A stretch of 64,000 nt of DNA from Deroplatys truncata (Eukaryota > Arthropoda > Insecta > Mantodea > Mantidae): positions 213,753,290 to 213,817,289 of the forward strand of contig CM060990.1 in NCBI GenBank assembly GCA_030765065.1. The letters run 5' to 3'. Shown here piece after piece: positions 11,501 to 60,869 of this stretch; the stretch's first letter is position 1, and the number at the start of each line of letters is the position of its first letter. A program made the translations under genes and the position numbers. The notes beneath the pieces are model-generated. The model worked only from the letters and a program-made list of their open reading frames with translations, was not told where the DNA came from and ran no database searches.

Positions 11501-11579
11501 TTTAAAGGTTATGTAAGCACTCCGAGAAACAGCATTGCTTTTATTTTCCTTTCAAGTGAACAGTGGATATTTATGATAT

Positions 11580-13137: not shown

Positions 13138-14593
13138 GTGAAAGAAAAAAAACCTGCACCGTCCCATAATAGCAAATATAGAGTACCAGGTTTACTGTAT
13201 GCGGATGATCTTATGGTTGGGGCTATAATGGTAATTGGGCTACAGAAAGCAATCAATGGAATACAGGAATTCTGTGTAGAATGGGGAATTAAAGTAAATA
13301 TAAACAAATCAAGAGTTATGGTATTTACAAGAGGAAATAAATTAAAAAAGAAGAGAAATGGCAGATGGGGGTTTAAAGTTAGAAGTTGTCAAGGAGTTTG
13401 ATTATTTGGGGGCAAGGATGAGCAGTAATGGAGAATGGTTGGCACACAGTAGGAAGGTTATCGCTAAAGGAAAGGCGGCAATGACAGGAGTAAGGATGTG
13501 CAAATATAAATTAGAAATGCTGACTAAATGGATAGAAAGAATGTATGAGGCATTGGTAGAAGCAAGAATGCTATATGCAGTTGAAATTTGGGGGGGGATC
13601 TGAATTAAGCAGAAAAATAGATTAGAGCTACAGAATGTTTTGTAAAGAACTTTTGGGGTTATCAAGGTCAGCACCAGGGGAAGTAGCATTAGTGGAATTA
13701 AGAAGAATAAGAAGAAAAGCAGTAATATTGGAAAGGATACTGAAATTTTGGTTTAGATGCTTGAACAAGGATGGAGGAAAAATTTTAAGGATGTGTATGG
13801 ACCAACAAAGGAGTACAAAAAATAAAAATAGCTGGTAGACAGGGGTAGAAAAAAGTATGGAGAAGATCAGAATGGGAGATATTTGGAGAGCAGGAGAAAG
13901 AAATAGCAATGGCTTCTGGATAACAGTAAGAAACAGAGTGGAGGACACAGAAAGACAACAGATCTGGGGAAGCTTAGAGAATAAAATATCACTAGGGCTC
14001 TGTAGGCTAGTAAAAAGGGAATGGGGAAGAGAAGGGTATGTGGATTGCTGTAATAGAGCAGAAAAGAAGCATTTGCATGGATGAGAACAGGATCAATGTA
14101 CGAGAGGCTTAAGAGGCAGAAAAAGTGGAGTATGTGAACTATGCAGAGGCAGTGAAAGCGCAGAGCATTATATGATAGAATGCAAGGAATTAGCGGAATG
14201 GAGACAAAAAGTATGGGAGGAAAAATGGGAAAAAGTAGATGGAAAAATGGCAACAATTAAAATGTTGACAGGAAAAAAAGAATAAGAATATGGGGGAGTT
14301 TTTAAAAAAAAGGAAAGGAGAAATGGGTTAGAAAAGTAAGGGAGATAAGAAAGGTAGAAGGGCAAACGGAGGAGGGAGAGGATGGATCATAGGTGATTAA
14401 AGGTAGCAAAGGGCTGCTCAGTTGAGCCATAAGGCCAGGGAGCCAAGCAAAATGAACAGTACAGGCAGAACATAGCTGGCCAGAAAATTTGTACATAGGT
14501 TAAGTTAGTTTACAAATGAAATATTGTAAAAAGGCATTGTGTATAAAAATATGTACAAATAAAATTCATTCATTCACTCAATTATCTCTACAA
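13122..14593 (+). mobile_element. 5'-truncated LINE (family A, copy 1) with 16-bp target duplication
   Basis: The 16-mer TCAATTATCTCTACAA is present at 13122-13137 and 14578-14593, bracketing a 1440-bp LINE insert. The insert starts inside the reverse transcriptase: GLLYADDLMVGAIMVIGLQK (13191-13250; YADD is the catalytic motif), then WGIKVNINKSRVMVF (13285-13323). The thumb and C-terminal part include FDYLGARMSSNGEW, LLGLSRSAPGEVALVELRRI (13652-13711) and a zinc-binding-like CELCRG...H...C near 14134-14185. The 3' end is a (ATTC)n tail at 14563-14577. Stops and frameshifts make it inactive. It splits the last exon of the Myb/SANT-like gene. Related copies lie at 36.1-39.7 and 41.2-57.4 kb. 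Confidence 0.9.
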
Positions 14594-36252: not shown

Positions 36253-36540
36253 ATGATAAAGAAATTTATGAAAGGTAAAATGGAGCAAAACATAATCATA
36301 AACTGGTTAGTGCTTGTAAGCGTAATATTTATGTTATTAATGATAGGCAGGATTGAACTAAACCCAGGACCTGAGCAAATACAAACAATGCTAGAGAAGC
36401 TTGAAGAAAAACTGAATAAGACAGATGGAATGGAAGAATGCATAAAAGACAACCTGAAGCAAGTAGCAAAAGAAATAAGAGGTGCTAGAAATAAGGAGCG
36501 ACTTAGACGGGATCAAGGTGAAAATAGAAAGAATGGATAA
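36253..36540 (+). CDS. LINE N-terminal fragment with 2A-like motif
   Basis: 95 codons. A hydrophobic stretch (WLVLVSVIFMLLMI, about residues 17-30) runs straight into GRIELNPGPE (31-40), which matches the 2A consensus D(V/I)ExNPGP except for Arg in place of Asp. A charged coiled-coil-like segment follows (MLEKLEEKLNKTDGMEECIK). 2A-like peptides that make the ribosome skip a bond are known at the N-terminus of some LINE proteins in invertebrates. The rest of the protein continues in other frames, so this is a piece of a broken gene. Confidence 0.6.
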   Translation: MIKKFMKGKMEQNIIINWLVLVSVIFMLLMIGRIELNPGPEQIQTMLEKLEEKLNKTDGMEECIKDNLKQVAKEIRGARNKERLRRDQGENRKNG

Positions 36541-37358
36541 GAGGAGGAAAAGATTAAATTTGGTGTTCATGGGTGTGGAAGAGAGAAGAGGTGTTTGGAA
36601 AATGTAACGAAAATTCTAACGGACAAACTAGAAATGGATCTGACCGATGGGAGATTGTGGAGGCATATCAAGTAGGTAGGCAAAGTAGGAAAAGACCAAT
36701 AATACCAAAATTTGCAACATCCAACTTAATTCATGAAATTTTAAGAAGAACAAAGATGTTAAAAGGGAGCAACATACTTAAAAACAAAGACCTGATAAGT
36801 AGAGTTCAGAAATTCTGTGAAGAATGGGGAATCAGAATATAAACAAGTCAAAAGTTATGGTTTTCAAAAATGGAACTAAACTGAGAAAAGTGGGTACTAA
36901 ACGGGAAAGGATTAGAAGTGCTCAAAGAATTTGAATATTTAGAAGTGAGACTGAATAACAAAGGGGAATGGGAGGCACATAGAAAAATAGAAGTAAAAGG
37001 GAGGGCTGCAATGACAGAATAAGAATATGTAAATAAAAATAGAAATGACAACCAAGTGGCTGAAAAGAATGTACAAGGATCTAGTGGAATAAAATAATGC
37101 TTCATACAGTAGAAATCTAGTGGGGGGGGGGCCCCACAGGTGTAAGCGAAAATGTAGATCATATGTACAGAATGTTCTGTAAAGAACTATTAGGATTACC
37201 AAGATCAGTGTCAAGAGAAGTAGCTTTAGTAGAACTAGGAAAAACAAGGAGAGGAATAATGGGAAGAATAATAAAATTCTGGTATAAATGTTTGGTTAAA
37301 GAAGAGGGAGAAATCTTCAAGTTATGCATGAAGCAGCAAAAACGCTTGGAGAGACAAA

Positions 37359-38988
37359 GGGCAGCGCGCACCACGTTGCAGTAAACTGCTTCGGAAGTAA
37401 CGTTTACTAAAGAATCCGTACTAAGGAAGTAGGTTACTACGGGAGGAATTTACTCCGGAAGTAATGGAGAGCTCAATTACAATTTACTCTTTATTACAAC
37501 TACGGAAGTAAGGGCTCAATACTCCCGGAGGTATTGTTTTGCTTGCGCAATTTACTTGATGCGATCATGGGTAAGGTTATGTGCGAGAGGAAAAAGCAGG
37601 TGAAACGTCAGCGAAAGAGATAAAGAAAATCCATTTAAACAATATGAGTGTAAAAACGTGTTATAAGAAGAGCATCTGCTGGAAGAGAAATGCCGAAAAG
37701 TAGTGACGGACGAGTTTAATGCTTTGAGCGACAGGAAGCGTACTAAAGAGCAGCTTAAAATTCTAGAACCAATGTTTCTAATCTTCATTTTGCATCGCAG
37801 ATCTTCTTGCGTGTTGGAGAAATACCCCTTCAATTTCGGAAAAGTTCACCATATTCATGGATGGGCACAAAATAGAAACATGTGTGCAGTCAATTCCACC
37901 CACAATGTGTGGGAAATCTGCAAAAGCGAAGAAGAATTGCTTTTTATTTTCTGAACACTCATATATATATATTTATATGTGTAGATATGTACCTTGCTCT
38001 TAACCTCAAATGTGCTCTAAGAATGCAGTGAAATACATGAACAGCAGACACATGGTGAATGTTTATTTATAAGATCGCCTGTAATGCGGGATTATGATGA
38101 ACTTTACTTAACGTGACATGAAGTTAAGAATTGATGTAATGTAAAATAAAGGTCTAATTGACATGCACTTAACATAATGGGAATGACTCTTGATTGATAG
38201 TTCTTATTATTTCGAGCTAGTGCTTCATGACGATTGGTTCTAATTACCATGCGACATCAAACTTGATGTAACAGGAAGGAAAAGTTTGACATTGCCAAAC
38301 TCTTAAGTTACGCCGCGTTAAGTTAATTCTAAATATCATTTAATACAGTGTTAAACTGTCATGTTACGTTAAATTCATCATAATATCAGCTTAAGTATCT
38401 GAAATGTACTGCTACAAAACACTTGTATGATGCATAACAAGAATTGCAGTTTGGGTTATAGAGATGAATTCCTGTCTGAGTTTTGTTGTCAATGCTGTCC
38501 AAGCAGGTTAAAAAGGCATGCAGAAGATTCTTTCCTAATACCGAAACATTCGTTGAACACTCTCTCTCTGTGTATAAGTATCATATGGTTCTCGCATACC
38601 ATTATAGCATTCCCGATTTCTTCGTTGAGATCAACGTAACCTAAGTAATCGCTGTTTTCTTCATCGAGATCATCAGTGTAATCTAAGTAATACATGAACA
38701 CGTCAAAATGTGTTCCTCCAAATACAATATGGTATTCTAGTTCAATCAACAGGTTGGTTACTCCATCCAGGTCGCAAGAGTAAATTCTAACCTATATTTG
38801 TGCTCTATTTAATTCCGTAGTAATATACTACATGACGGTGCTCTCCAACATTTACTTCTGCAGTAATTTAATCTGGGAGTATCTGAAAAGAGTAAAATGC
38901 TTCACAAGTAGTTTATTCTCATATGGAAGTCGCCGAGTGTTGACTTGAATAGTAGGTAGAGCTTACTCTAGGTTGGTGCATGCCACCC
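37359..38988 (-). mobile_element. PIF/Harbinger element (parent-type of the MITE at 60.1 kb)
   Basis: Ends are GGGCAGCGCGCACCACGTTG and, reverse-complemented, GGGTGGCATGCACCAACCTA. About 260 bp at the left and 130 bp at the right match the two ends of the 436-bp MITE at 60058-60493. The interior carries minus-strand HARBI1-like fragments (below). It sits between LLGLPRS... and CEMCGEKES... of LINE copy 2. The 3-bp target duplication expected for this superfamily is not clear (AAA versus ATG). Confidence 0.88.
37840..38770 (-). pseudogene. HARBI1-like transposase fragments
   Basis: Minus strand. From 38600 down: RERVFNECFGIRKESSACLF, then NLLGQH and SDRNSSL, the N-terminal helical region of HARBI1-type proteins (normally RFRLSK...V..LL...L...TDRN..LSP). 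An acidic leader (YLDYTDDLDEENSDY) precedes it. From about 37940 down: FFAFADFPHIVGGIDCTHVS, the FPxxVGxIDCTHV block holding the first catalytic Asp. The middle and the rest of the DDE core are lost. Different from the HARBI1-like remnant at 11.6-12.5 kb. Confidence 0.75.
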
Positions 38989-39980
38989 ATGCATTTGGTG
39001 GGCAGGGATAGGAATAATTATGGGGAAAATAGGAATGGGACACACATGGAAGCTAGAAGAAAGGAATGAAAGTGATGTAGGTAAACTTGGTAAAAAGCAA
39101 ATAGAAGGCATAGAAAGGCAGGAGGTATGGGAGGTTTATAAAAAACAAGAAATCATTGCAATTCTATAAACAAATAAAAAGAGACTGGGGACAAGAACCA
39201 TATGTAGATTACTGTAACAGATAAGAAAAAGGAGGGATAGCTTGGATGAGAACAGGAACAATATTTCTAAGAGGGATAAGAGGTAGAGATAAAGGAATAT
39301 GTGAAATGTGCGGTGAAAAAGAAAGTGTAACACATTCCAACACATTATATGATGGAATATAAGCAGTTAAAGCTATGGAGAAAAAATGGGAAAAAAATAG
39401 AGGGGAAAATTGTAGATATACAAAAATGTTAACAGTGAAAGAAGAAAGGAAGATTAGAAGCATGGGTGAGTTTTCACAGCAAGCAAAAGAAAAATGGATA
39501 AGGAAAGAAGACAGGTAAGGAGGGGGATAACTTAAGATAAAAGGGAAGGGATAACATGAGCTACCAGGCGGAGCAAAGGGCCTGGGTGCCATGCAAGCTA
39601 AGGTAGCAACAAGGTTAATTCAATTTGTACATAGTTTATGTTACACAAATAAAAACAAAATCATAAAAGCTATGGAAAAGAAGTCATACAAATAAATTCA
39701 TTCATTCATCTTCATGTACAAATGCTTGAATTTTTACATAGAGAATGCTGATATATTTCTTTATTCAATGCCCTTCCTTTCAAGCTTTTGTGATTTGACA
39801 CCTGACTACACATTTAATTGAGATGTGTGAATATTCTTTCTATGAATAAATCAGCTCAATGATTTTTTTTTCTGAAAGTTAAGGCAAAGCCGCTCAATGC
39901 AGTTCATAAAAGCTGGTAATACTATAAGGCACAAGTTTCCTGAAACAATGGTATACCAAAAACTGATTTGAGGTACCTAC

Positions 39981-41220: not shown

Positions 41221-43519
41221 ATTTGACGTGTGCTATTTAAGGGAAAAGGGGATTTGAATTGTCCAGGGAACTATAGAGGAATCAGTTTGTTATCTATTTA
41301 GGTAAAATTTATACTGACATATCGGCTCTCAGATTACAGGAAACAGCTAGAAGGGAAATCGAGTGAATATCTCCAGGATTTAGAAAATTCAACAGATAAT
41401 CCAAACTACAATAAGTATTTGAGGAACAAAAGAGGTAGAGTGTATATGTTTTATGCCGATTTTGAAAGGCATTTGATACAGTTAAAACAGATGTACTGGT
41501 GTATAAAATGACTAAGGGCATAAGTGAAGGGTTTATTTCAGAGGTTCAAAAGTGGTATGTTGGAGTTAAACTCTTGTGTTAACCCTCTTAGGGCTTGTAT
41601 TATGACAGTTACTGCTACCTGTTGGTTAACAGGAGTGCCCTGTATTATGAACACAAAGTAATTGTAGCGTAGTTAACCTGAAGTTTAACAATTTGGTATG
41701 GTTGGCAACACTTTCATGTGCAATTTCATGCCACCTAGGTGGAAACTTTTACATTTTATGTTTAGAATAAGCTTTCTGCTGTAATTTTCTTGAGTTAGCT
41801 ATCTGATTTCCATATATAATGAAACCTAAAGTTTGTATTAAATTAGTTTGAGGAATTTCGTGATTAATATCGACTGTTTCCGATGACTGGATGCAAAAAG
41901 GAACATAATAAAGCATACTTGTTAATATTGCAATTTGTATAGGTTAGGTAGCAGCACATTTCTAATGCCGTTAGTTCACATTGGAATAGGTTAAGTCATT
42001 TTGATATGTTTAAGAAGAGTGATTTGCCATTAATAAAGTTCTTGGAGGTAGTGTAAAATAGGATAGCTATACATGTAGCTAGTTTGAAAATAAGTTACAG
42101 CTTTTCAGAGTATTAGGTTATGTGGGATTTCACTATAAATATGATTTAGGTTAATGGGAAAGTAGATTTTGTATATAATATAAGAATGCGTTGATAGCGG
42201 AGAATGTCGGAGTCTCTCTTGATTCTAACATACGCTAACACATATTGCATTAGTGTTGCTGTTAAAACATCCGAAACTGATTAGAGCAGGAATGAAATGG
42301 TTTACCTGATGTATATTAGTATCGTACTTGTTTCTGCCAGGTGCTTGATGACACAGAGGTATTAGCCGTATGGCTTACTCCACTACATTGAAATTTGTGA
42401 CCATTACAGTTAAGAAACAATTTCGACAAGTGTGTTAAGTTAAAATAGACCATAAACTCAAGAAGAAGTGGTGATGCTGCTACAAATTATTACAGAGCAT
42501 AAGTGTGATAGAAAGTAGAGCATAGTGAATTTTCATAAACCTGAATTATTTCCCCAACTTCCTCATCGCTCTCCTCGAATTTACTTTTCCGAGATCTTAT
42601 TCCTATTATATAAATAATGTCTGAGCATTCACCTCGGCATCGCTACATGAAGAATAATGTAGGGCTTTCGCTAGATTAAAACATTTCAGAATATTAAATT
42701 ATACAGCTTTCGCTGTTAACATGCTCTGTGTGGTGTGAATGAAGTTATTAATAAATGCTTACATTTAGAAGAAAACCCCCACAAACAAACAAAAAATGGA
42801 AAGCCTATATTAAATACCTAGGATGTCACCGTTAATATACCTTTTGTAGATTAGTGTGGGAATATATTGTATGATTTTGGAGTTTTGTTTTCGCCTTCCT
42901 ATACATTAGTAGGAAAATAGGACCTTATGGAATGTAAGGTTAAGTTTCGCTGTTATTTCATAAAGGTTACTTGCAAAATAGGTTAGACGCACGAATATTG
43001 GATTAATATAAGTTACATTATATATTTAAGCAAACTTTGCGGACATTCACATTAAAAAAATAAAAATAAAGCAATGTGCAAACTTATATAAGGAGGTATT
43101 ATGCACCATAATTGAAGACATGAGTGCAAGAACTAGATAATAACCAAAAGGATAGTTTTGAGAAAAGTGAGAAAAACTTTTAACACTGTATTATATTTAC
43201 ATTTCATAGTTTATATTGATTTAGTATGAAAATATAAGTTAAAGTGCACCAGTCTGACAATTTTCTAGCTACTAATTAACCAAGAAATATATAAAATCAA
43301 GAAAAATATATGCTGGAATTATCCATTTCTTGCACCCAAGTTTCATGGAATGCATGAACTACGATAATGCAAGATAAAAACAGTTTTCATAGAGCAATTT
43401 TTGATGTCAACATACAATAATATTGTAAGATCCATGTATGAAGGCTTCTTTAATAGAAACTCAACAAATACTACTTCAGTAGAGGTGATAAGAGTGGAAG
43501 ACGCTACACTTTCAGCTTC

Positions 43520-44350
43520 AGAATCTCCATTCCCATCTTCTTGCCTGTGTCTGTACCTGTACAGGAGGAATGTATTTGTGAACCAAATTCATCATATCAC
43601 AGTACTTCTTTCTTTTCGGTGGCAATGATCCCCTGATACAGCTCATGGGCATATAAGGTAGGGATTTGCTATGTCTGAAATATGCAAAATTTAGAGTGAA
43701 CCGGTGTGTCCTGAGCAACAGAACAGATACTTACTTCCTTTCATAAATAAAATGACGATATTTTACTGATGGTAAATGATTAATTATTATTCCTTATTGT
43801 TTTCTTTAATAATGAGTGAAGATGTCCTTTAAGGTACAATATGATTTTCTGATCTATTTTCACTACCGTAAATTTCTTTGATGCCGATGTTGCAGTATCA
43901 TATCATATATATACATATATATTCTTCGGGCACAAAGACATACTCTTTCTTTTGCTCGATCTTCTCAATTTGTGCAAATGCTCAATCACAGGGCATGAAT
44001 GAATGTCCCCGTTGTGGGAAATGGTGATATATTATACTAAATCTTTCCAAAGCAGCAAGTGTTTAAATACATCAACATATTCTTGTTATGCCCCGCACAG
44101 TTGTCACAAAGAGATGCAGGGTTTTAACTTTCTCATCATCTTATCAACATAGTTCTCTATGTAATGTTTCAAAATTTAAACATTTTCATTGGATGCCTTC
44201 CTTTCGCAAGTTTCAACATACATGTACTTCTCGACCCTCCAGTTGTACAAGAAAATATACCCATGTTGAACACCCAAAGTTGTCTCTTATAGAACAGCTC
44301 ACCTGTAATTACTACAGGAACTAGACGGTTTATAAACATAATACAGTACA
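43520..44350 (-). pseudogene. Transposase-like C-terminal half with CDNCAGHNKN motif
   Basis: Minus strand: KRQLWVFNMGIFSCTTGG (near 44235-44290), then LCDNCAGHNKNMLMYLN (44050-44110), and PFPTTGTFIHAL in shifting frames. Farther left, GSLPPKRKKYCDMMNLVHKY (about 43560-43620) is followed by IPP. I recall a large arthropod family of uncharacterised proteins with LFxDNCxGQNKN...HFPxTGHSFMPxD...K...LPxxxxKYxDLxxLC..xIP. The order and spacing fit that family, and the first block looks like a DDE-type Asp region. The superfamily is unknown to me. Confidence 0.55.
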
Positions 44351-44362
44351 CTGAATAATATA

Positions 44363-45520
44363 CAGTAGAATCTCGTTAGTACGTTTTTGCAGGGACCTAA
44401 GTATTTGGACGTCATAGGCGGGAAAACGTGTTAACGAAAATGCAAAATCTGCAATTTAAGAACATAGGTAATAAAAATCTAATAATTACTACGTCTCCAT
44501 GGGCAATTTAAATCGATTTTGAGTACAATTTCATACTGAATACGATCCGCGTTTCCATGTTAAATTCAATATGTTTAAATGGATTTGGATACACAAAGCT
44601 TGAGAATAAATAATTTAAGCTTTTATTTTGGTCAACTTGGATTTTTTAGGTTATGAATGTTTTTGAGAAAATAAATTGCGAATTGTGGAAGCGGCAATAG
44701 TGGTTTTGCTGTGTGTTTTATTACACACGTGATAACAATTTCTGCTAAAAAAGAAAAAATTATGAGCGTGCATCGTGTTACGAGTACAATAGACGATATT
44801 ATCTTTGGTGTATACAAGACGATTTGAATACGGAGGTGTTTCCATGCAACAAATTTCGTTCTGGTCCTCTTCTGATCCTATTTTCCAAGAGAAAAGTTTT
44901 GTTTTAGTATTTTTCCCTTCTTTAAAAGCAGTTTCAATCAATTTAGGTTTGCTTACAATCGTGTTTAAGGTTGATGGAACTTCCGCACTATATCGACATG
45001 TTTTATATTTGGATTGTGATTACATCAAGGATTTTCAGCTTTTCACTGTTGGTTATTTACCTACTACACTTTCTTTTTTTCATTGTAAATGAAAAGTTAA
45101 AATACAATCTACGGTTGTTTGGTCATCACTCAACATTAGAAACTATCGTTAGCGTTTACCACGCCAAGGTAAAGCATTCTCTATCCCGCCCACAGAAATC
45201 GTGTCACACAAGTATTTAAATGCATGCATGTGATTGGCTGCCGATATCCACCCCGTGACCAAGGATTGACCAAAGTAGCAAATGAGGACGTCAAACTATG
45301 AACGTGTTATAATAAACGCCTACTCCCACTGTACCGATCAAGGATTGGCCAAAACAGCGAATGAGGACGTCAAAATTCAAACGTAGTAGGCGGGACCGGG
45401 AAAACGCACTAAGCAAACATTATTTATTATATTTGGTGATTTGGTACCGGGACTTTTATAATTCAACGTAATACACGGGAAAACGTGTTAATGAGGAACG
45501 TGCTAACGAGATTCCACTGT
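44363..45520. mobile_element. Pogo-like non-autonomous element, TA-flanked
   Basis: Ends CAGTAGAATCTCGTTAGTAC and, reverse-complemented, CAGTGGAATCTCGTTAGCAC, each flanked by TA (44361-44362, 45521-45522). GGGAAAACGTGTTAA occurs near both ends. The 1158-bp body has no transposase. A block CAAGGATTGACCAAA...AATGAGGACGTCAAA recurs twice near 45258-45375. It is nested in the TTA-flanked element. Confidence 0.82.
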
Positions 45521-45837
45521 ACCTATATTAGATGCTACACATTATTTCTATATAGGAATTATCTTGTATTTAAATGACGAAGCCCTGTATTTTACATTTA
45601 ACTGAATTTCATCTTCGCTTTCTGTACCATTCCTTCCGGTAACCAATTTCGTATTTTTCCTCAATTTCAAAATGAGATCAGGATGCCTGCCATAAAAAAG
45701 TTCAACATTACAGGCATTTATGTACATATTTCGCTATTTATATGTTAGTACCAGTACTTTTTCATGGATATTTGAATGTAAAGTAATTCTGCTTCATTAA
45801 ACACTAATCTCTGAACATTATGACATATAATTAACCC

Positions 45838-46113
45838 CATCAAGTATGCATTCCGAGTGTTATCACTGAGATTATTGAAACGATCAAGGATTTTCTGCTT
45901 AATTTCATATGAGAATTTGGATGTGCATTTCGTTTACATGCACAATCATGAGCAATTGTCTTTACAGGAATAATTTTTCCTGATGTTGGAACATAAGTAC
46001 TCTTCTCCATGCAAGATATTCCTTTTTCTAACATTTCTACTCCAATTGTCTTCATTACTTGTCCTTTTCCTGAGCTTTGCCAGGGAATATTCAACAGAAC
46101 TTGGCACCGGTAC
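45838..46113 (-). pseudogene. Unclassified transposase, exon 2 (NW..N and Cys-rich motif)
   Basis: Follows a TTTTAG acceptor. Reads VPVPSSVEYSLAKLRKRTSN, EDNWSRNVRKRNILHGEEYL, then a Cys cluster and TKCTSKFSYEIKQKILDRFN. The pattern RKR..N..NW.RNV.K.....G..Y, a Cys-rich part, then K(F/C)(S/T)xExRxxIFxxF, is the N-terminal signature of the same unnamed family as 43520-44350. Two stops sit in the Cys region. Confidence 0.55.
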
Positions 46114-46235
46114 CTAAAATATCGCAATATTATTAACATTCAGATTACAACAAACCTGTTAAAAATAATAATCTTTAAATAGTAATAAAATTACTAATAA
46201 AGTGTATTTAGGTGATACATCTATTACTTACGTAC

Positions 46236-46295
46236 CTCTGAATCGAAATCTGAATTAGCATCCGCCAACATTGCTTCACTATTCTCTGTCATCAT
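46236..46295 (-). pseudogene. Unclassified transposase, exon 1
   Basis: MMTENSEAMLADANSDFDSE followed by a strong GTACGTAAGT donor; the next acceptor is at 46114. Short acidic start exon, 20 codons, ending on a codon boundary in the phase exon 2 needs. Confidence 0.5.
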
Positions 46296-46891
46296 TTTGT
46301 CAGTGACAATGCAAGATAGCAACTGAATGCAAGAACTGGATACTTCCGGTTATTATCTACTTCTTGCACTCAAAGCAGGCTCAGCTGAAACTTAAAACTC
46401 CATCTAATGAGGAAAGTAGCTGTAGTTTGTTAAAATGCTTATAGTGAGAGATGGAGGGCACATGAGGCTTCAATTTGGCGTAAAAACCTAAACTTCACAA
46501 AAAGTGGTCATTATCTGGTTCTTGCACTCAGGTCTTCTATTGTATTAGAACTTAAAGGAAACAGTGCAACTTTCGACAATCTAATAACGCTTACGAAATT
46601 CACCCTCGTCACAAACCTGGAAATTACTCTTATGGAAGTCTAATTATTTCTGTTTTCCTCCTGTTATGTAAATATTGCTCTAATACTTTGCCTTGGAATC
46701 CTATCGACCATGAATCGAGGTATGCCAATGTTGTATAGTTACCTCCAAGTTAGTACTTAACCATTACCCGAGGTGGCTCGCTAAGAATAACTCCCGGTTA
46801 GCTGTTAACTGAAGGTTGTAATATGAAAATTTACACTGACTCCCAGTTAATTTCTAACCGGAACCTTAACCGGAGATCGTAATACAGACCC

Positions 46892-47640
46892 TTAGTGCTG
46901 TGTGGTAGAGCAGCCGCCAGCCCTTAAAGTGCCAGATATGAGCAGATCGGTTTGAATGTCCACTCCACTTAGTGCCAGAGTTGATCACTTGCAAAAGCTT
47001 TCATGGTAAAACTATTTTTCTGACAACCTATACTGGTGGAATTCACATCCTTGGAAAGATTCAACCTTTTTCCTTCGACTGGTTGGTTTATAACAGTATG
47101 CCTGGGATTCACAATAGTAAACAACCCCTCAGTTTATGATTGTATGATGTGCACTTCATTTGTAAAATGGCAATAATTTTACACAATAATTTTACAGCTG
47201 GTGTTGACGAGAAGCTGTTGCATTATTTCAAGCAATGGTTAATGCAGATGAGCTGATGTCAGATAGTGATAATCGTTCTGATAATGGTGACATTTTACCA
47301 GACATGCCCAGTGGTCCTCCACCACAAAAAAGGAGGCATTTCAGCAACTCACTGGAGATGATGCCGACATCATTATAAAAAATGTAGATTATGTTTAGTT
47401 TTCTGTTCCACTGTAGATTCCCTAAGCAAAGAATGGTGTCTATAAGAAATAGCATCTACACCGCTCTAATTACAGAGGATAGTGCCAGCAGACAAGTCTG
47501 CGGTGTCAGGTTGTTACCTGGAAAAAAAGAGACAGTGCATTGTGTTCCATTCACTGCAACAAAAGTGATAAAGGATTGCACACCAGGTGTACAGCCACTC
47601 ATAAGTGTGCACAATAAGTCTGTGTAAATAATTATGTATT
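46892..47640 (+). pseudogene. piggyBac transposase remnants
   Basis: N-terminal acidic piece (QAMVNADELMSDSDNRSDNG, DMPSGPPPQKRRHF) at about 47228-47345, then a jump to the C-terminal end: RQVCGVR, KKETVHCV and, in a shifted frame, HCNKSDKGLHTRCTATHKCA (47555-47615). The latter are the Cys/His residues of the piggyBac C-terminal zinc-binding domain. The catalytic core is missing. Confidence 0.7.
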
Positions 47641-48749
47641 GATTTTCTGAGCCACTTGAGTGCTATTAATTTGGTTATGTCTCAGTTTTTATTCAACATG
47701 ACTGCAGTTATTCATTCATTAATAATATTATCAGCTATTAGTGCCATTAGTGTTATTTTAATATAACCTGTTTCAGTGGAACATATTACACCTCTTATAA
47801 AATTAACACACATCTATTACTATTATAGATGGATATTATATTACGTGGGCCTTATGCTTGAAAAGTTTCCACCATTGTATTTCTTAAACGTAGCTATTTT
47901 TATACGATTTTTCATAATAGTTACTTCTCGCTTAAAATGCCATGGCAGTTTATGCCAGATAGGTGTGGTGGGCCTCTGTCTTTCTCTAGCTGGTTTGGGA
48001 AAGCCAATCAGATTGCCTCACGGCAGCAAGAGGATTAAATGTGCAGGAAATGGTGGATCAGAAGGTAGGTTTGAGACAAGGTTGCAAATTGCGTCCATTT
48101 TTGTTTAATTTATTCATTGATGATATGATGGAAAGGGATCTAAAGTGTAATTTACACTGTCCACTTGGTATAGGAAAGAATAAAGTACCAGGTTTGCTAT
48201 TTGCTGGTGATTTAATGGTAGCTTGCATTACAGTGATTGGACTGCAACGAACAATAGGTAGATTTTGTGCAGAATGTGGTTTAAGAGTAAATGTTAGGAA
48301 CATGGAAATAATAGTGTTTAGAAACGGGGGTATAAATTAAAGAGATGAGAGACGATATTTGAATGCTGAGCCTTTGGAAGTGGTTAATTAACTTGATTTT
48401 GGGGTGAGGTTATCGAGTGGTGGAATGTGGGAACTACAACGAAAGAATTTTTTTTTAGCGGTTTGAGTGGCGCAAAACTACGGCGGTCATCAGTGCCACC
48501 TTCTGGCTATAAATTTATTCAAGTCAGTACATAAGCAATAAAAACAAAACAAGTACAGGTTAAGCATCTCAGATTACAGAAGTAGAAAGAATAAACAAAA
48601 ATACAAAAGTTACACAAAACAGCTCACAAATTAAAAGATACCAGAACTAATACTCAGCAAACACAAGCACTTGAGTTTGTAATGACACAGTTGGAAAGGC
48701 AGTAACACACCAGAAACTACAAGATTAAATTTTATTTAGGAAACCACTG

Positions 48750-51700
48750 AATTTAATGTAGTGAAAAAGTTTGGCGATGGAGGCAGTCATCCCCTAAAAC
48801 CTCAAACTAGGAGAGAGTCCAACTCATTCGCGAAGGGCGGAATAGAAACAACACTGGGTACGGAAATGCTTCACTGTGAAGGGCATATTGCAGTGGAAAC
48901 AGCGAGGTGGGCATTCACTCCTAAGAAGGTAGCCGTGACTAAAATAACAATGGGCAATACGAAGCCTCGCAAGCACGGTCTCCTCACGACGTGAAAGACA
49001 AGAAGAACAATGCCAAGGAAGCGTTGTAGCCTTGACCTCTCTGAGTCTGGCGGTAGACGTAAGCCACTCTGCATGCCATTGAGAGAGTATCTGTCAGCAC
49101 AAAAAACCCTTCAAATCCATACAGAGGCAGCGGAGAACCCATTCATTGGGGTGTAGAATCGCAGCCTGATCTGCCAGTTCATTTCCTACAATGCCACGAT
49201 GTCCAGGAACCCAGACGAAGACTACCCGAAAGTCATCAAGATTGAGAGTGGGCACAACTGTTCATGGATTTTCTGAACAAGTGGGTGTTGGCTATAGAGA
49301 TCCCATAAACTAAGTAAAACACTGAGGGAATCGGCATAAAGGAAGCTAGAGCGCAGGGAAAAGGAGCAGATGAAAAATGTGGCTTTAAATATAGCATACA
49401 GTTAGGCAGTATAAACAGAAGCGCTAAAGAGTAAACAAGTCTTGCATACAATATGTGAATCAACAACCACAGCGCAGGCTACCCCTTAATCTGTTCGAGA
49501 ACCATCAGTATGTAGAAAATGGTATCCAGGAAAGTTGTGTTTCAAAGCCGCGAAATAGGCTGCATATATAGGAACGGCAGTAGTGTCCTTGGGCAACCGA
49601 GCCAGATCAAGACGATACAGAGGGGTGTGGCATATCCATGGAGGAAAAGCAAGGGAAGGACTACATCCAACTTTGACAGTAAGTCTGAAACCTACACTCC
49701 TCGGGAAGCAGTGCAGACGGACTATTGCGTTAACGATAATCCAGAGCAGCACCAAAGAATGTAGAATAGGCGGGGTGAGAAGGCAGTGCATGCAAAGCGG
49801 AGGCATAATTACAAAGAAGAATATCCGACGTATCCAAAGGGATGGTTCACCAGATTCCACATACAAACTACAGGTGGGACTAGTACGTAAAGCTCCTAGG
49901 GTTAATCTAAGGCCTTGATGGACAGGATCCAATTGATGCAGAATAGATGGCCAAGCAGAAGAATAGACCATAGACCCGTAGTCAAGTTGCGAACGTATCA
50001 AAGCCCGGCAGAGATGCAGCAAGAGGACACGATCGGCATCCCAAGAAGTGCCACTAAGGACACGAAGTAATTGCAGGGAACGAGCACAGCATCCGCGAAT
50101 ATATAAAATATGAGGTTCCCAGCAAAGTTTACGGTAAAAAATGTGACCGCGAAATTTAGCTTCAACAAACGGCAGTTCCACTCCACCAAGAGAGAGATAG
50201 GGAGCAGGAAACTCTTTACGACGCCAAAATTTAAGATAGCGGGTTTTCTCCGCTGAAAATTTAAGCGCATTCTCCAAACTCCTAATGTGTAAAATATCAA
50301 GAATGCACTGAAGGCGTCGTTGGATAAAGCGCATACGCCCAGAACTACAACAAATTGCAAAATCTACAAAGAGAAACAGCGTGATGTTCTTTAAAACGTT
50401 CGACACTATAGGAATAATGGCTATAGAAAACAAAAGAACACTCAACACCGAGCCCTGCGGCACACCGTTCTCCTGTCTTAAGATCAGGTAGAAGGAAGAT
50501 CCCACACGTACTCGAAAAGTACGGGCATCCATAAACTGCTGCTAAAAGACAGGAAGATGACCCCTGAAATTCCAATGGAAGAGCTGGTGGAGGATACGCC
50601 AAGGGGTATTGTAGGCCTTTTCTAAATAAAAAAAAAGACAGCGATCGTCTACTGTCTGCGCAGAAAAGAATTATAAATGTGAGTCGCCAAGGAAACCAAA
50701 TGGCAAAGAGCAGACCGCCGTTTACGAAAACCGCATTGTACAGGAAGAACAGAATATGATTCAAGACACATCAATCGCTTAGCGACCATATGCTCCATTA
50801 CTTTACAAACACAGCTTGATAGAGAAATGGGTCGGTAGCTGGTTGACAACCGTGGGTCTTTTCCACACTTAAGAATAGGAACAATAATGGAATCGAACCA
50901 CTGAGAGGGGAAAGCGCCATGTAGCCAAATATGGTTAAAGGTGTGTAAAAGAAAGAGCTGACTACTTGGAATCAAGTGTTTAAGCATTAGTGCATGAATA
51001 CCATCCGGGCCAGGGGCAGTATCAGGAGTGACCGACAAGGCTAAGTCCAATTCAGCTAATGAGAAGGACAGATTATTATCTTCACGATTCTGAGAGGTGA
51101 AATCAAAACTAGAGGACTCCACCGATCTTTGACAACCAAAAATTGGGGATCATAGTGGGAAGAACTAGAGGCAGAAGCAAAGACTCCACCCAGGGAATTA
51201 GCTATATAATGGGGATCAGTAACAATGTTGCCAGCCACAGATGAGGAAGGTTTACCACAAAGTCATCGGATTTTAACCCACGCCCAGGAGGAAGTGCAGC
51301 GTGACAAAGTGGAGACAAAATGTTCCCAAGAAGACTTCTTACACCACCGAATTATTTTCCGATCCTGAGCATGCAGCTTTTTAAAAGTAATCATGTTCTC
51401 TAGTGTCGGATGACGCTCGAACACCTTCAAGGACTTTCGGCGAGCTCGGAGAGCGGCACTACATTCCTCCAACCACCAATGTACCAAAGTACGTCGTCCA
51501 GTAAACAATATTTGAGGAATGGAAAGCTCAGCACTGTCCAGTATCGTGTCCTGAAGATATTGGACTCATGCACCAATATGAGGAAAGGAGGCAGTGTTAT
51601 CTAGGGCCACAAGTTCAGAATAAAGGGGCAGCATGCCCTACTAAACACCCACTTTGGTGGGCAAGTAGGGCTAACTCTGTGAACCACATGAAGCAAAACA

Positions 51701-52356
51701 GAGTAGTGGTCACTGCTGTATCAGAAACCACAAACCAGCGCAAAGAGGTAGCGAACTGTGGCGAACAGAAGAAAAGATCAAGACAAGAAACAGAGCCAGA
51801 AGAATCACAAACAAACGTGGGAAGCCCAGAACTGAGCGTAACTAAATCGTGGAGATCTGCAATTGCAGCAATCTGGGTACCCCTAGGACACTCACGGACT
51901 GAGCCCCATAAAGGATGATGGGCATTAAAATCACCTAAGATAACAAACGGTTGGGGGAGCTGGGAAAGCAAATCTAGAAAGCCCTCTGCAGCCCCAGAAG
52001 AATTAGGTGGGAGGTACAAAGAGCACAGTGTGAAAGAAAGAGATGGGGTAAGGTAATACGCAGAGCTACCACTTGTAAATCAGTAACTAACCTGGACCGG
52101 AGTGCAGTAAAGGTCCCAACGCACCAAGATACAAGTTCCCCATGGGCATGACCACCATCAGGGACGGGAGATCGTTACGAAAAGCCATATAGTGAAGAAA
52201 GTGCATATGATCTGCAGGGCGGAGTTTAGTCTCCTGAAGGCCCAAAGGCTGATAAGTAGAAAGCAGAAGGTTCAGCTCCTCCTTATGGGAACAGTAACCA
52301 CACACATTCCACTGCAAAAAGGCCATAAGAAATAGAGGAAAGGAAACTAGTAACAA
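48750..52356 (-). pseudogene. LINE ORF2: endonuclease, reverse transcriptase, RNase H
   Basis: Endonuclease: FLQWNVCGYCSHKEELNLLL (N-terminal strand and Asn), LQETKLRP (catalytic Glu), VILGDFNAHHPLWGS (Asp/Asn pair, 51895-51940). Reverse transcriptase: TPDTAPGPDGIHALMLKHL (51010-51070), STSYRPISLSS (50820-50850), VQCGFRKRRSALCHLV (50690-50740), GVPQGSVLSVLLFSIAI (50415-50470); the catalytic FADD box reads LFVDFA (about 50357). RNase H: HTDGSRTD (about 49490), DSLSVLLSLW and VPGHRGIVGNELADQAA (49160-49215). About five frame breaks; inactive. Confidence 0.88.
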
Positions 52357-52491
52357 ACCGGGAAAAAGGGCAAAAACCTTTAAAAGTCAGTCTGCCTTGA
52401 CAGTTCCAAACGATTTCGATACATGTTTGTTTTTGTGTTCATGAACCTTAGATGCAGAGTTCTTCTTTCTGGGGTTTGGCGACAAAGATGG

Positions 52492-54274
52492 TTAAGAAGG
52501 CTTTTGCTTGAAAGATTTATCTGTAGCGCTAACAGCAGTGGTGGACTTCACAGCAGCTTTGGACTTCTTCTGAGTCGGTAATTTAACACTGGTCACCGCA
52601 GATAAAACGTTTACTACAGAAATGTCGGTGGTGGCCTGGGACAGATCCACAGAAGCAGCCGCGCACGACTCATTGGAAAAAGGAGATGGCACAACAGGAG
52701 GTGTGGAAGAAATGTCCCTATCCATACCACTAATAGATGGAGAACGGATGTTCTCAGTGCTGCGAGAGACAGCGGGGAGTGAAGGCACAGCAGAAAGCAC
52801 TGGTGGATGAGAAACATCCATGGTGTCTAAATTTCCAGAATTGCTGGACATCGATGACGGAGTACCGGAGGTGGAACACCGTAAAGCAGTGACAGAAGGA
52901 GCACCCCTAACACACTTCAGAGGTTCCCGCTACAGTAAATGTGGTGAAAAGGCAATTCTCTTGAGGAAGCCAGGAGCAGCATCCTTCAGGTCGGTATCCA
53001 TAGATGGGTCTGCAGGATTATCCTAAGATAAGGAACCAAAGCGATTACCCACTTCAAGTGACGGTTGGAATGTCGAAGGTTCCCGACGCTGATGAACTGG
53101 CGGAGAAGTAAAACGCTGATGGGGAAGTCTTGGAAGATTTCAAAGGAGCGGAAACGGGGGAGGGCTGAAAAGGAAGGAGGGTAAGGATAGAACTGCCATT
53201 ATGGCTAGCTCGCGGAGTACAGGTACAAATGCAGGTACAGTTCAAGTTCGAAGACACAGGAGTAGTACTAGCTGCAGACTGAAGAACCTGACGGAAGCAT
53301 CCGCGAGTTAACCTCGTGGGAAAGAACAAGCGAAGTTTCTCCTTTGCCTCTCGATATCCAAGTTTTTTCTTAACTCTCATTTCTTGTATGGCGTATTCTT
53401 CTTTATACACAGGGCAGCTACGAAAGTATGCAGGATGGGCACCCTCACAATTCACACATTTGAAAATGGGGTTCAAGGAGAACCGTCGTGTCGATTTATT
53501 CCACACCAAGGACATAAAGGCTGCCGCTTACAGGATAATGCTCTATGTCTGATTCCTTGACAGGAGAAACAACATAGAGGGTTGGGAACATATTGACGAA
53601 CACGCAGTATCTCATAGCCAGCCTTAAGTTTGGAAGGAATCTGCCTTAAGGCAAAGGTCAAAAAAGACCATTCTGGTAGCTACCTGTTCTGCACCTTCCC
53701 GCTGCAGGAGCCGTTTAGCTGCACTCACCCCTTGGCTAGAAAGGTAGGCGACTACTTCATCTTCAGAGAGGCCGTCTAAGGCGGAGGAAGTCACAACACC
53801 TCGGCAGACATTCAAGGAAGCAGTGCCTCCAACAGTAACTTCTTGGGTTCCAAAGTGATGTACCTGGAGTAAACTAAGGGAATGTGGATCATCCTTAGTC
53901 AATATCAATAAAGACCCTTTGTGTTGCCGGGTACAGTTCTGAACTGGGCCAGCGATTTTGTCCAAAGTGGTTTGAACCACGAAGGGGTTCAAAGAGCTAA
54001 GCGGTGTTTGGTCTGGTGTAGCGGAGTGCATAATTAAATAACAGTGAGTGTCACACTTTCCTGACGTAGAAACATTTTTTTCTGAGGCAAGTTCAATCAT
54101 ACGTCTCTTTTTAGAGGCTACTAGACGAAAATCTTTAGTAGTGTCCATAGCTCCAGTGAATACCATGCACGGAGAGACGTCACTGGACTCCTCTATCTCC
54201 ATGCCAGGTCGAACCTCGTGGCGGTTCCGAATGGGGTCGACCTGAGATCCCGCGCCACTCCAGATACCCTCCAA
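52492..54274 (-). pseudogene. LINE ORF1 with three CCHC-type zinc knuckles
   Basis: Minus-strand ORF1 of the I/Jockey-type LINE. The N-terminal part (54274-53624, 216 codons) is largely open and contains VQTTLDKIAGPVQNCTRQHK, then SLLILTKDD and LSEDEVVAYLSSQGV, an RNA-recognition-like region typical of these ORF1 proteins. Zinc knuckles follow: PLCCFSCQGIRHRALSCKRQ, PLCPWCGINRHDG (53480-53580) and CVNCEGAHPAYFRSCPVYKE (53400-53465). The last 120 codons are low-complexity Ser/Thr/Val. At least two frame breaks. Confidence 0.82.
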
Positions 54275-54819
54275 GGGAGTGGTAACAGAGCCTTTTTACG
54301 GGCAGGGTAGTTAACCCTAACCCAACCCCCAAAACCCGGAGGACCGTTGGCTCGGGACCCCAAGAGCGCCAATCCCGTACTTATTGAAGTAAGCCCCTGG
54401 GGGAGGGGGCGAAAGAACATTACCACAGGTTTTAGACATGGCTTTAGGTTAAGTTAACTTCTATTATACTGGTAGTTTCTTTACAAGCGAGTGGAGTGGA
54501 GAGGGGCAGTAGTCTGGTGCACTACTGAGTTTGTCTGTGCTGAGTACTGTATACACTATAGGTATAGATGGGCACAGAATTAAGTATACAGTTCTGTACT
54601 AAACATAGGATTTTATTACAAAGTATAAACATGAACAAAATAATAAATCTAATCTGTGGCAGATGAAATAATCAGTTTTATGTATGATTTACATGCATGG
54701 ACAACTATTGCAATGGATTACAATATATTTTCTGAATGTATCAAAAGCAAAATGTCTTCTATTATAACTCAAATTTTATATCTTGAAAAACTGTTTCACA
54801 TCACATGACGTGACTGGTG

Positions 54820-56195
54820 CAAAACGAAACTGACCAATGGCGCACACACATCTATCTGAGAAACACATGTATTTTCATTATTTAAAATGGCATCCTTAAT
54901 ACGGCATATAATTGCATCTCCTGGGTTTTTATCTGAAACACTCTTCAGTTTTTGCTTTGCTATTTCAGCAGCAGAACATTTGTCTACTTATGTAAAATGT
55001 TGTGCCAAATTTTTGACAAGTTTCAAGGACTCTGGCATTGGCATCTGTGACGATTCAAGTTGTTTTATTGTTAAAGGAATATTCTTAAATATACTAACTG
55101 CAAATGTTCATACAGCTGTGGAAATATTTACGATTTTGCAATTTTAATAGCTGAACTTGCTTCATAGTCAAATTTGCTAATCACTTGAACAATCTGGTTG
55201 TAATGCTCAAAGTAGTGCAAAGCGGTCACCAACCAAGAACCCCACTGTGTCACAATAGGTTGAGGTGGCAAAGGAATTCCTGGTGCTAGTCCTTTAAATT
55301 GCCCTAGAAGGTGCCTTTAAATTTTTTTTTATATTTGAGATTAAATCATCTACATCAGAAAAATGTTTCCTAATCTGTTCTGCCACCCGGTGAAGACCAC
55401 GAGATAAACACGCCAGATGTAAAATTCTGGGATAGCATTCCTTAATTCTGGAAGCAGCTTTGACCATATAAGGGGCTGCATCCATCACAAATAGTAATAT
55501 GCTCTCAGTTTTTATACTGTTTGGCCATAGAAGAGACATTGTACTATCAAACAGCTTGTCAATGGAAGAATGGTTAACTTTGTTTAACACCTCAGATGTT
55601 AACAAGAATATTCAGGAAATTAATATCCTATGGCCACATTGACTATAGATCTCCCAGTAGCATTTGTGGTTTCATCTATCAAAATCCACATATTATGATC
55701 TCCCACAGAACATCTAATGTTGTTCAGAGTATCATAACCAGGAAACAAATAATATTTGCATAAAGTGGACTCACAAGGAACTTTCATAGCTGTATATCAT
55801 AACCAGGAGACAAATAATATTTCCATAAAGTGGACTCACAAGGAACTTTCATAGCTGTATATTTATCCAGAAACTTTTTAAAGCAGATTTTGCAACTTAT
55901 TAAATGGGATGTTTGCACTTACCATCATGTCACATAAATCCCTGTAAAATTCGGTTTAGCTACATGAGTTCGTGCTTTCTGATGTGGATAATATATCCTC
56001 ACCCCTCTAGGAAGCAATGTCATATTGTGCGAGCGATTTTTAGATTTACAGTGTCTTGCAATAAAAAACCTTCTCTCCCCTTTGATTTCAATGTGGCATA
56101 CTTTACAAAATATATTTTTCCCTCTTACATCAAAATACTCATGTCCATATTCACTTACAAGTAAGATACTCTTACTGGTTGTTTTCGGCATGTTT
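54820..56195 (-). pseudogene. hAT transposase (CGGBP1-like finger type), decayed
   Basis: Minus strand, in order. Finger: EYGHEYFDVRGKNIFCKVCH and CKSKNRSH (56080-56160). FNKLQN block near 55900. Catalytic start: ILIDETTNATGRSIVNVAIG (55640-55700). DKLFDSTMSLLWPNSIKTES (55510-55570) and FVMDAAPYMVKAASRIKECY (second Asp, 55435-55500) follow, with LHLACLSRGLHRVAEQIRKH next. Then FKGLAPGIPLPPQPIVTQWG (55225-55290) and ALHYFEHYNQIVQV. The tail is incomplete. Four or more breaks. This is a different hAT lineage from the one at 9.9-11.5 kb. The fragment at 60.9-61.3 kb belongs to the same lineage. Confidence 0.85.
55731..55860. repeat. 65-bp tandem duplication inside the hAT pseudogene
   Basis: ATCATAACCAGGA...TAGCTGTAT occurs twice head to tail, 55731-55795 and 55796-55860, with two differences. 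It repeats a coding segment, so it arose after the transposase lost function or killed it. Confidence 0.93.
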
Positions 56196-57479
56196 CGTCA
56201 ACTAACAACGGCCAGACTTCGTAACTTCAGAGCAGGCTGTACATGAACTGATCACTTGCTTAGAGTAAATGACTGGCAATGCTTGGGGAGGGGGAGGTCT
56301 CAGAGAAAACCCTGTGCACACGTAACTCTTTTCCAGTCAAAGTGCAACAAAACAGCAACTGTGTCCGAAGCCTAGTTATCACTAAAGGTAAGATAGCCGG
56401 AGAGCAATTAAAATATGTTTGAATAAGATTCCAAATATGTCAGTAAAGTGGTTAGAGAAATTTTATAAAGCAGCTGTGGAATCAAGAATGTGATATGGAG
56501 AGAAGTGTGGGGTCCTTCAAACAGATGGTTAAAATAGACTTAATTCAGAGAATGTTTTGCAGACAGATATTGGGATTGCCTCAAACTACACCGAAGGGAG
56601 TGGCATTGGCTGAGTTAAGAAAGGTAGGGAGGAAGGTTTGATGATGGAGAGAATTTTAAAACATTGGTACACGATTCTGAAATAAGGGAGTCACAATGTT
56701 CTAAAAGAGTGTACAAAATTCCAAATGGAAGTAATGGGAATTAACAGCTGGATGGGTGAAGTATGGAAAATTTACAAGAAACTGGGATGGGGTAGCCGTG
56801 GAAATTTGGAGATCAAAGAAGAGTAGATTTTGGGGGGAAGTTAGGCAAAGAATTGAAGATATAGATAGGCAAGAGATGTGGGCTAGTTTTATAAAGAGTT
56901 CTTTAAAATTATATAGAATAATTATAAATGATTGGGAGAGGAAGAAATGTGTGGATTGTTGTGATAAATTTGGGAGGGAAGGATCTGCATGGATGCGAAG
57001 AGGAACACCATTTTTAAAGGGTTTGAGAGGAGATAATGGTGAAGGGTGCATCATGTGTGGGAAGCTAGAAGGAATATTTCATTCTTTATTAGAATAAGAT
57101 GGGGTGAAGAGATAGAGGGAGGGTATATGGGAAATAAAATTGGAAAAATTACAGAAAGAAACTTTAGCACTTAAAACGCTAACTGGTATGGGGAAAAACA
57201 GAAATAAAATAATAGGAGAATATTTGGGAAAGGTAAGGAAGAAATGGATGAGAGCAGTTAAAAAGATGAGAGAATTGAGATATACATGGATGTTAGACTT
57301 AATAGATTATAAATTTAGGTTTAGTACTTTAGTTATAATTATAAAAATGTTTCTGTTGTTTTGCTTGCGTTTGTATATTTATGACATTGTATCAAGGGTT
57401 AGAATAAGTATTCAATTCAATTGGGGCTTGCAAAAATGGACTAACCATCAATTTCTTAAAAAATAAGTTACATGCTTCA

Positions 57480-60057: not shown

Positions 60058-60493
60058 GGGTGGTGTGCACCAACCTGGAGTAAGCTCTACTTTCGTAGTA
60101 AACTACTATTCAAGTCAACACTCGGCAACTTCTATGCGAGAGTAAACTACTTCTGAAGAATTTTAATCCTTTCAGATACTCCCACATTAAATTAAATTTT
60201 CTTTATTTCTATACCAACAAATATTTATATCTTTCGCTGACGTTTCTCACCTTTTCCTATAGCACATAACCTTATTCATCATTGCATCAAGTTAATAGCA
60301 CAAACAAAACAATACCTTCGGGAGTAATGAGCTCTTACTTCCGTAGTCGTAACTAAAGGAGTAAATTGTAATCGAGCTCTCCAACGTTACTTTCAGAGCA
60401 AATTGCTCCTGTAGTAACCTACTTCCGTAGTGGGGACTTCTTTAGTAAACGTTACTTCCAAAGCAATTTACTCCAACATGGTGCACGCCACCC
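60058..60493. mobile_element. Harbinger MITE, 436 bp, TTA target duplication
   Basis: Flanked by TTA at 60055-60057 and 60494-60496. Ends GGGTGGTGTGCACCAACCTG and, reverse-complemented, GGGTGGCGTGCACCATGTTG. Its two halves match the two ends of the 1.6-kb Harbinger element at 37359-38988, with the transposase interior missing. It has subterminal repeats of (G)GAAGTAA/TTACT type. Confidence 0.93.
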
Positions 60494-60869
60494 TTAGGGT
60501 GTCTAATGAATATCAGAAATCAAATTCAATTACTTTTTGGTTATCTTAAGAAGGAGCAATCCAATGTACTTTTTGCCAATAAACTGTTCACACAAATGTT
60601 TCTATTAATTTACAATGCACATAATGGATTACTCCTTATATACTCATTACCAAGGCCTGGAGGTTTAGCCAAAAATTAATGAGGTTAAAGGTGCACGATG
60701 TATAGACTATGGCTGTAAACACCAACTTGCACAGAGAGTGCGGGGGTCAACAAGAGCAGGTAGGTACACTCTCATAGTGTTGTGTGACTTAAGTGCAAGC
60801 TGATCATGACAATAATGGTGTAAAAATGCATAAGGACGTCCAAAAGCGGCCACTGCAAATGTAGTCTTA

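What the first reader, a model, noticed from the sequence alone, without database searches (positions are those of the whole stretch)
41225..57440. Four-level nest: LINE > piggyBac > TTA-flanked transposon > pogo-like MITE
A LINE reverse-transcriptase reading is cut exactly at a TTAA by piggyBac (41583-48034) and resumes at 48035. The piggyBac is cut eight bases from its own left tip by a 5.3-kb element flanked by TTA (41591-46891). That element is cut at a TA by a pogo-like MITE (44363-45520). Each junction shows its own target duplication, so the order of insertion is fixed. The same LINE is cut again at 48447 by an I-type LINE.
Basis: partly seen in the sequence, partly recalled or inferred. 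Interest (0 to 1): 0.75.

Follow-up and report, generated by a model that had tools for sequence, protein, structure and literature searches.

The report
Six jumping genes stacked together
An old, broken retrotransposon in a eukaryotic genome was hit three separate times by other mobile elements, one of which was itself hit in a chain of two more; such stacks are ordinary in eukaryotic genomes, but one layer may carry a gene family of unknown function that could be a transposase.

Summary
The reported nest is real. The TTAA (41579-82/48035-38), TTA (41588-90/46892-94) and TA (44361-62/45520-21) duplications are present. Removing the TTA element raises the match between the piggyBac-like tips from 9/21 to 15/21. 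The two LINE pieces match neighbouring parts of Pfam RVT_1 (18-93, then 115-191); joined, they align to human L1 ORF2p across the join.

The second interruption is larger than reported. It holds an APE-type LINE (48448-54409) with an 8-bp duplication, CGAAAGAA, found on the + strand of the 64 kb only at its two ends, and, 9 bp further on, a hAT-like element (54427-56374; DUF659). Two other copies of the old LINE in the window run across this junction, one clearly and one weakly. No copy found crosses the first one.

The TTA element shows no Harbinger transposase domain in six frames. Frame-stitched readings match Pfam DUF7869, and five 21-bp subterminal repeats flank that gene. This suggests, without proving, that DUF7869 is a transposase. 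Overall an ordinary nested-transposon locus with one lead worth following.

The parts
41225..41582 (+).
   Evidence: RVT_1 18-93; stitched 7-93, 30.3 bits
48035..48447 (+). LINE-A, middle piece, incl. second TTAA and first CGAAAGAA (48440-47)
   Evidence: RVT_1 115-191; paralogous to copy B 13157-13474
54410..54426 (+). LINE-A, 17-bp sliver between two inserts: second CGAAAGAA (54410-17), one base, left hAT duplication ATTACCAC (54419-26)
56375..57421 (+). LINE-A, right piece (RT tail, C-terminal region, 3' end with ATTCA-type tail), incl. right hAT duplication GTTATCAC (56375-82)
   Evidence: aligns to copy B from 13457 and to copy C; 3' limit read by eye
41583..48034. piggyBac-like element (1148 bp of its own sequence once the nested element and one TTA are left out); TTAA duplication
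   Evidence: tip restored 15/21
41591..46891 (-). TTA-flanked DNA transposon, ends GGGCTTGTATTATGA / GGGTCTGTATTACGA (12/15)
43919..44297 (-). decayed DUF7869-like coding region of the TTA element
   Evidence: Pfam PF25273 E 8e-8 on a 4-segment frame-stitched reading; 5.9e-6 with one frame shift; place
45805..46295 (-). upstream part of the same gene, by eye: ATG at 46295, GT-AG-like intron, WSRNVRKR...NAYLMGLI region (46101-45805)
   Evidence: no Pfam match for this part
43121..43338 (.). subterminal repeats TGAGTGCAAGAACYRGATAAT (43121+, 43318-)
46324..46530 (.). subterminal repeats (46324+, 46352-, 46510-); the first two can form a hairpin
44363..45519 (.). pogo-like non-autonomous element (1157 bp), TA duplication, ends 21/23
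   Evidence: no transposase domain
48448..54409 (-). I-type LINE (endonuclease, RT, weak RNase H), poly-A seen as T9 at 48448-56, 8-bp duplication CGAAAGAA
54427..56374 (-). hAT-like element with DUF659-like gene; imperfect 8-bp duplication 6/8; ends match 9/12 with a one-base offset
13157..14350 (+). LINE-A copy B: spans the 48447/56375 junction without the inserts
36801..39519 (+). LINE-A copy C: spans the same junction (more weakly); internally deleted and itself interrupted at about 37341-38989

Best explanation
An old non-LTR retrotransposon (LINE-A) received three independent insertions: a non-autonomous piggyBac-like element at a TTAA in the RT domain, an I-type LINE by target-primed reverse transcription (mechanism inferred from its family, poly-A and duplication), and a hAT-like element 9 bp beyond that. 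The piggyBac-like element was then hit 8 bp from its left tip by a DNA transposon that duplicated TTA, and that transposon was hit by a pogo-like non-autonomous element at a TA. The order along the first chain is fixed by containment; the order among the three hits on LINE-A is not. The TTA transposon carried a DUF7869-like gene between sets of subterminal repeats; that this gene was its transposase is inferred.
For: Target duplications at the junctions. The piggyBac tip match rises from 9/21 to 15/21 on removing the TTA element; across the junction 9/13 against 3/13, random-pair chance 0.002. RVT_1 18-93 then 115-191; the joined reading scores 61.2 bits against 30.3 + 26.4 apart and aligns to L1 ORF2p 529-745. 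Copies B and C cross 48447/56375. CGAAAGAA occurs on the + strand of the window only at 48440 and 54410. Endonuclease, RT, RNase H and DUF659 matches. Five 21-bp repeats confined to the TTA element.
Against: No copy found crosses 41582/48035, and no genome of the species is held. No transposase domain in the piggyBac-like or pogo-like elements. hAT duplication only 6/8, tips only 9/12 with a one-base offset, DUF659 below its cut-off. The grid against copy B has near-equal optima over about 25 bp; the empty-site model that keeps the left hAT duplication scores 89 against 97 for the right one. The tip evidence for the TTA and piggyBac-like elements would not be significant in a free search. No second copy of the TTA element's tips in the window: 9 matches with up to 3 mismatches against 8.5 expected.
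Confidence: 0.88

Rival explanations
1. The two LINE pieces flanking the piggyBac-like element are fragments of different LINE insertions or an assembly misjoin, and the TTAA pair is chance.
For: No in-window copy found spans the junction; TTAA makes up 0.9% of positions and any 4-bp match occurs in 0.6% of random pairs; a frame shift sits at the join.
Against: Same strand, neighbouring RVT_1 positions, an L1 ORF2p alignment that runs across the join, restored inverted tips; the LINE then continues in the order of copy B.
Confidence: 0.07
2. The TTA-flanked element is a PIF/Harbinger transposon (or a Harbinger that picked up a host gene), and DUF7869 has nothing to do with its movement.
For: TTA/TAA 3-bp duplications fit PIF/Harbinger (passages of PMC2836001; GGG-type ends recalled); a Harbinger lies in the same window.
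Against: No DDE_Tnp_4 match in any of six frames, while the same kind of scan finds it in the decayed Harbinger at 11300-13160 (E 1.4e-11); the subterminal repeats bracket the DUF7869-like gene.
Confidence: 0.35
3. The DUF7869 match is an artefact of choosing reading frames by eye.
For: Frames were chosen with the family in mind; all 4 single-frame pieces tried give no match, nor do the unstitched frames; about 8 million three-switch paths exist (my arithmetic), enough to offset E 8e-8. A weak second family (Gad1, 0.059 and 0.015) also turns up.
Against: One frame shift already gives 5.9e-6, just above the curated cut-off (26.4 against 26 bits), and a second one-shift piece gives 0.0083 at the neighbouring profile positions.
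Confidence: 0.12

Closest known systems
Nested transposon clusters of eukaryotic genomes
   Same: Successive insertions, each with its own duplication
   Different: Six elements of five kinds within 16 kb, three hits on one LINE; ordinary in kind (recalled; not surveyed here)
piggyBac superfamily
   Same: TTAA duplication; CCCTC left tip, one of the four 5' tip motifs listed in PMC10813416 (passages)
   Different: Only 1148 bp of own sequence, no transposase domain; shorter than the 1.23-9.51 kb reported there, where MITEs were left out
PIF/Harbinger superfamily
   Same: 3-bp TTA duplication, GGG-type tips (recalled)
   Different: No DDE_Tnp_4 found; DUF7869-like gene instead
pogo/Tigger superfamily
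   Same: TA duplication, short TIR (40 bp or less, PMC7386202 passages)
   Different: Non-autonomous, no transposase domain; tip resemblance recalled, not tested
I-group LINE (APE, RT, RNase H)
   Same: Domains in that order on the minus strand, poly-A, 8-bp duplication
   Different: RNase H match weak; clade not tested by a tree
hAT superfamily
   Same: DUF659-like gene, 8-bp-type duplication
   Different: Duplication 6/8, tips weak

Membership tests
piggyBac | TTAA target duplication | tested here: met
   41579-82 and 48035-38
piggyBac | CC-starting inverted tips (Kolobok, another TTAA family, has 5'-RR ends; PMC9587614 passages) | tested here: inconclusive
   Left CCCTCTTA.. met; right TCCTCTTG.. 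starts TC; 15/21 between them after restoring
piggyBac | piggyBac (DDE_Tnp_1_7-type, name recalled) transposase | tested here: not met
   No transposase match in six frames of 46892-48034; 0 PDB matches for a C-terminal-like piece; expected of a non-autonomous derivative
PIF/Harbinger | 3-bp TTA/TAA duplication | tested here: met
   41588-90, 46892-94
PIF/Harbinger | DDE_Tnp_4 transposase | tested here: not met
   0 matches in six frames; same-window control positive
DUF7869 (PF25273) | Profile match above the curated cut-off | tested here: inconclusive
   32.5, 30.5 and 26.4 bits against 26, on frame-stitched readings only
pogo | TA duplication and matching inverted tips | tested here: met
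   21/23; shared with other Tc1/mariner-type elements
pogo | pogo transposase | tested here: not met
   expected of a MITE
I-group LINE | Endonuclease + RT + RNase H | tested here: met
   Exo_endo_phos_2 1.8e-13, RVT_1 3.7e-7, RNase_H 0.011 (weak, below cut-off)
hAT | hAT-type transposase | tested here: inconclusive
   DUF659 3.5e-6, below its curated cut-off
hAT | 8-bp target duplication | tested here: inconclusive
   ATTACCAC / GTTATCAC, 6/8

The most novel reading that the evidence does not exclude
DUF7869, a Pfam domain of unknown function, is the transposase of a DNA transposon group that duplicates TTA, ends in GGGYYTGTATTAYGA and carries 21-bp subterminal binding sites on both sides of its gene: either an unrecognised superfamily or a branch close to PIF/Harbinger.
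Probability: 0.4. Interest if true: 0.55.

Novelty: new member of a known kind. Interest (0 to 1): 0.3.

Why it matters
As a nest it is ordinary: it gives a readable order of insertion and shows that a paralog in the same window can verify a junction. Its value is the TTA element. The insertion junction that fixes its ends is independent of its coding content, so it would tie a domain of unknown function to a transposon with known ends, target duplication and repeats, which makes a transposase role for DUF7869 directly testable in genome databases.

Tried and rejected
Searching for other copies: no whole genome is held, and the viral contigs gave no relatives of the DUF7869-like or LINE reading. 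A degenerate DxC[AG]GQNKN DNA pattern gave 0 viral stretches and 4 bacterial stretches, judged chance: by eye their translations show no further resemblance, and PF25273 matched in 0 of those 4 genomes, with a control silent in all 14 genomes, so that search shows nothing about the family's range.

Considered and rejected: that the 37-nt inverted repeats at 43110/46505 are the ends of a further nested element (no target duplication seen at the flanks by eye; they belong to a set of five repeats). A scan for more elements inside 41600-43200 and 46892-48034 gave 4 and 1 weak candidates, none convincing. Kolobok instead of piggyBac: disfavoured by the tips. PDB search with the DUF7869-like reading: 3 chance-level rows. 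Literature: 'DUF7869' in 0 papers; four wider searches listed 2, 1, 0 and 0 papers, none on this family as far as listings and, for PMC9587614, passages show. It may be in print under another name or outside this library. One search on pogo MITE tips found 0 papers. Of PMC8472432 I saw passages without use.
Full report
What the window is. It is taken to be eukaryotic: 35.8% GC, with decayed LINEs and DNA transposons and no whole genome held. The species was not identified. All tests therefore rest on the window itself, profile libraries and solved structures.

First chain. At 41579-82 and 48035-38 stands TTAA; at 41588-90 and 46892-94 TTA; at 44361-62 and 45520-21 TA. The pogo-like element has ends that match at 21/23 positions, which 0 of 300,000 random pairs reach. 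The TTA element's ends match at 12/15, then fall away (13/24). Left as it stands, the piggyBac-like element's tips match at 9/21 (reached by 9% of random pairs); with the TTA element and one TTA left out they match at 15/21 (4 in 100,000; 200,000 random pairs drawn); the 13 positions beyond the first 8 go from 3 to 9. This is the best evidence that the TTA element really inserted there. On their own, tips plus duplication would be significant in a free search neither for the TTA nor for the piggyBac-like element (and my arithmetic).

LINE-A. The left piece matches RVT_1 18-93 (15.4 bits, single frame) and the right piece 115-191 (26 bits); both are below the cut-off of 29.6. Stitched over a frame shift the left piece gives 30.3 bits (7-93), the right 26.4, the two joined 61.2 over 7-186. 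The gain from joining is thus about 4.5 bits; most of the rise over one search comes from the stitching. The joined reading aligns to human L1 ORF2p 529-745; there is no gap at the join, and a gap of 2 residues shortly after it. A frame shift lies at the join, as in other places of this decayed copy.

Copies of LINE-A. Two relatives were found in the same window: B at 13157-14350 and beyond, and C at 36801-39519, itself interrupted (whose translated list was cut at 80 of 277 rows). Both cross the second junction: B aligns to 48155-48445 (13157-13474) and to 56375-56700 (13457-13786); C, more weakly, to 48262-48382 (36812-36947) and 56400-56690 (37013-37310). Scoring all joins in a grid against B gives 99 at best (48438/56363) and 97 at 48447/56374; 1,773 random right flanks (227 of 2,000 draws near LINE-A pieces and copies were dropped) give mean 22, highest 75, that one at 36338 in the ORF1-like part upstream of copy C's RT tail. 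Neither copy reaches the first junction: B meets a Harbinger on its left (DDE_Tnp_4), C seems internally deleted, and the left RT piece has no other match better than E 0.047.

Second interruption. It holds two elements. The I-type LINE lies on the minus strand with endonuclease (Exo_endo_phos_2, 1.8e-13), RT (3.7e-7) and a weak RNase H match (0.011). It is bounded by T9 at 48448-56 and flanked by CGAAAGAA at 48440-47 and 54410-17; that 8-mer occurs nowhere else on the + strand of the window, and once on the minus strand. One base beyond the second copy stands the left duplication of the next insert, which has a DUF659-like gene (3.5e-6, below the family cut-off), ATTACCAC / GTTATCAC at its flanks (6/8) and tips matching 9/12 at a one-base offset (chance 0.001). 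With the inserts left out the sequence reads CGAAAGAA-C-GTTATCAC-TAAAGG, where copy B has AGTAGGAA-G-GTTATCGC-TAAAGG; keeping the left instead of the right hAT duplication scores 89 against 97. The order of these two and of the piggyBac-like element cannot be told.

What the TTA element is. Its duplication fits PIF/Harbinger, yet no DDE_Tnp_4 match appears in its three minus-strand or three plus-strand frames, though the same library finds it in the decayed Harbinger next to copy B. On the minus strand a broken gene can be read by eye: an ATG at 46295, a GT-AG-like intron, and a coding region that crosses several frame shifts and the MITE. A reading stitched from four segments matches DUF7869 (PF25273) at 8e-8, 32.5 bits; three other readings of the element in the same call gave nothing. 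A longer stitched reading gives 3.3e-7. With only one frame shift a 69-residue piece gives 5.9e-6 (26.4 bits, cut-off 26) and another 0.0083; the four single-frame pieces give nothing. As I picked frames with the family in mind, these E-values are too good. Independent of that choice, a 21-bp motif TGAGTGCAAGAACYRGATAAT occurs five times with 0-2 mismatches, all inside the element and outside the gene on both sides; the next best matches in the window have 5 mismatches, and 10 shuffles hold 1-10 matches with up to 6. Two of the five can form a hairpin (z -4.3, 0 of 200 shuffles as good). Subterminal sites around a gene are what a DNA transposon with its own transposase looks like (established knowledge, recalled). 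The step from there to 'DUF7869 is the transposase' is inference. The tips have no further copy in the window beyond chance. The library holds 0 papers naming DUF7869.

The piggyBac-like and pogo-like elements. The first has only 1148 bp of its own; its left tip CCCTC is among the four 5' motifs reported for animal piggyBacs (PMC10813416, passages), and neither tip has Kolobok's 5'-RR (PMC9587614, passages). No transposase domain was found. The second is 1157 bp, with none either. Both are best called non-autonomous.

Verdict. Nested transposons are ordinary, so interest is modest (0.3). The lead worth keeping is DUF7869.

Noticed in passing
window 36280-36390 (+): LINE-A copy C carries a hydrophobic stretch followed by a 2A-like motif (MEQNIIINWLVLVSVIFMLLMIGRIELNPGPEQIQ), resembling the signal-plus-2A starts described for some non-LTR elements (recalled; only the listing was seen); the usual D of the motif is R here (recalled).
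   Followed up: no
window 25075-26618: A Penelope-like ORF (RT plus a GIY-YIG-like end, by eye) is enclosed by 111-bp inverted repeats that are 98% identical.
   Followed up: no
window 18171-18324: A 154-bp stretch that matches its own reverse complement at 97%.
   Followed up: no
window 37341-38989 and 60058-60495: LINE-A copy C is interrupted by an element parts of which recur inverted at 60058-60495 (82-85% identity).
   Followed up: no
window 11300-13160: A decayed PIF/Harbinger (DDE_Tnp_4, E 1.4e-11) abuts LINE-A copy B.
   Followed up: partly
window 23018-24209 and 32346-34453: Two stretches that recur at 91-92% identity, together about 1.2 kb, split by some 0.9 kb in the second place.
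   Followed up: no
window 55730-55859: A 65-bp tandem duplication (97%) inside the hAT-like element.
   Followed up: no
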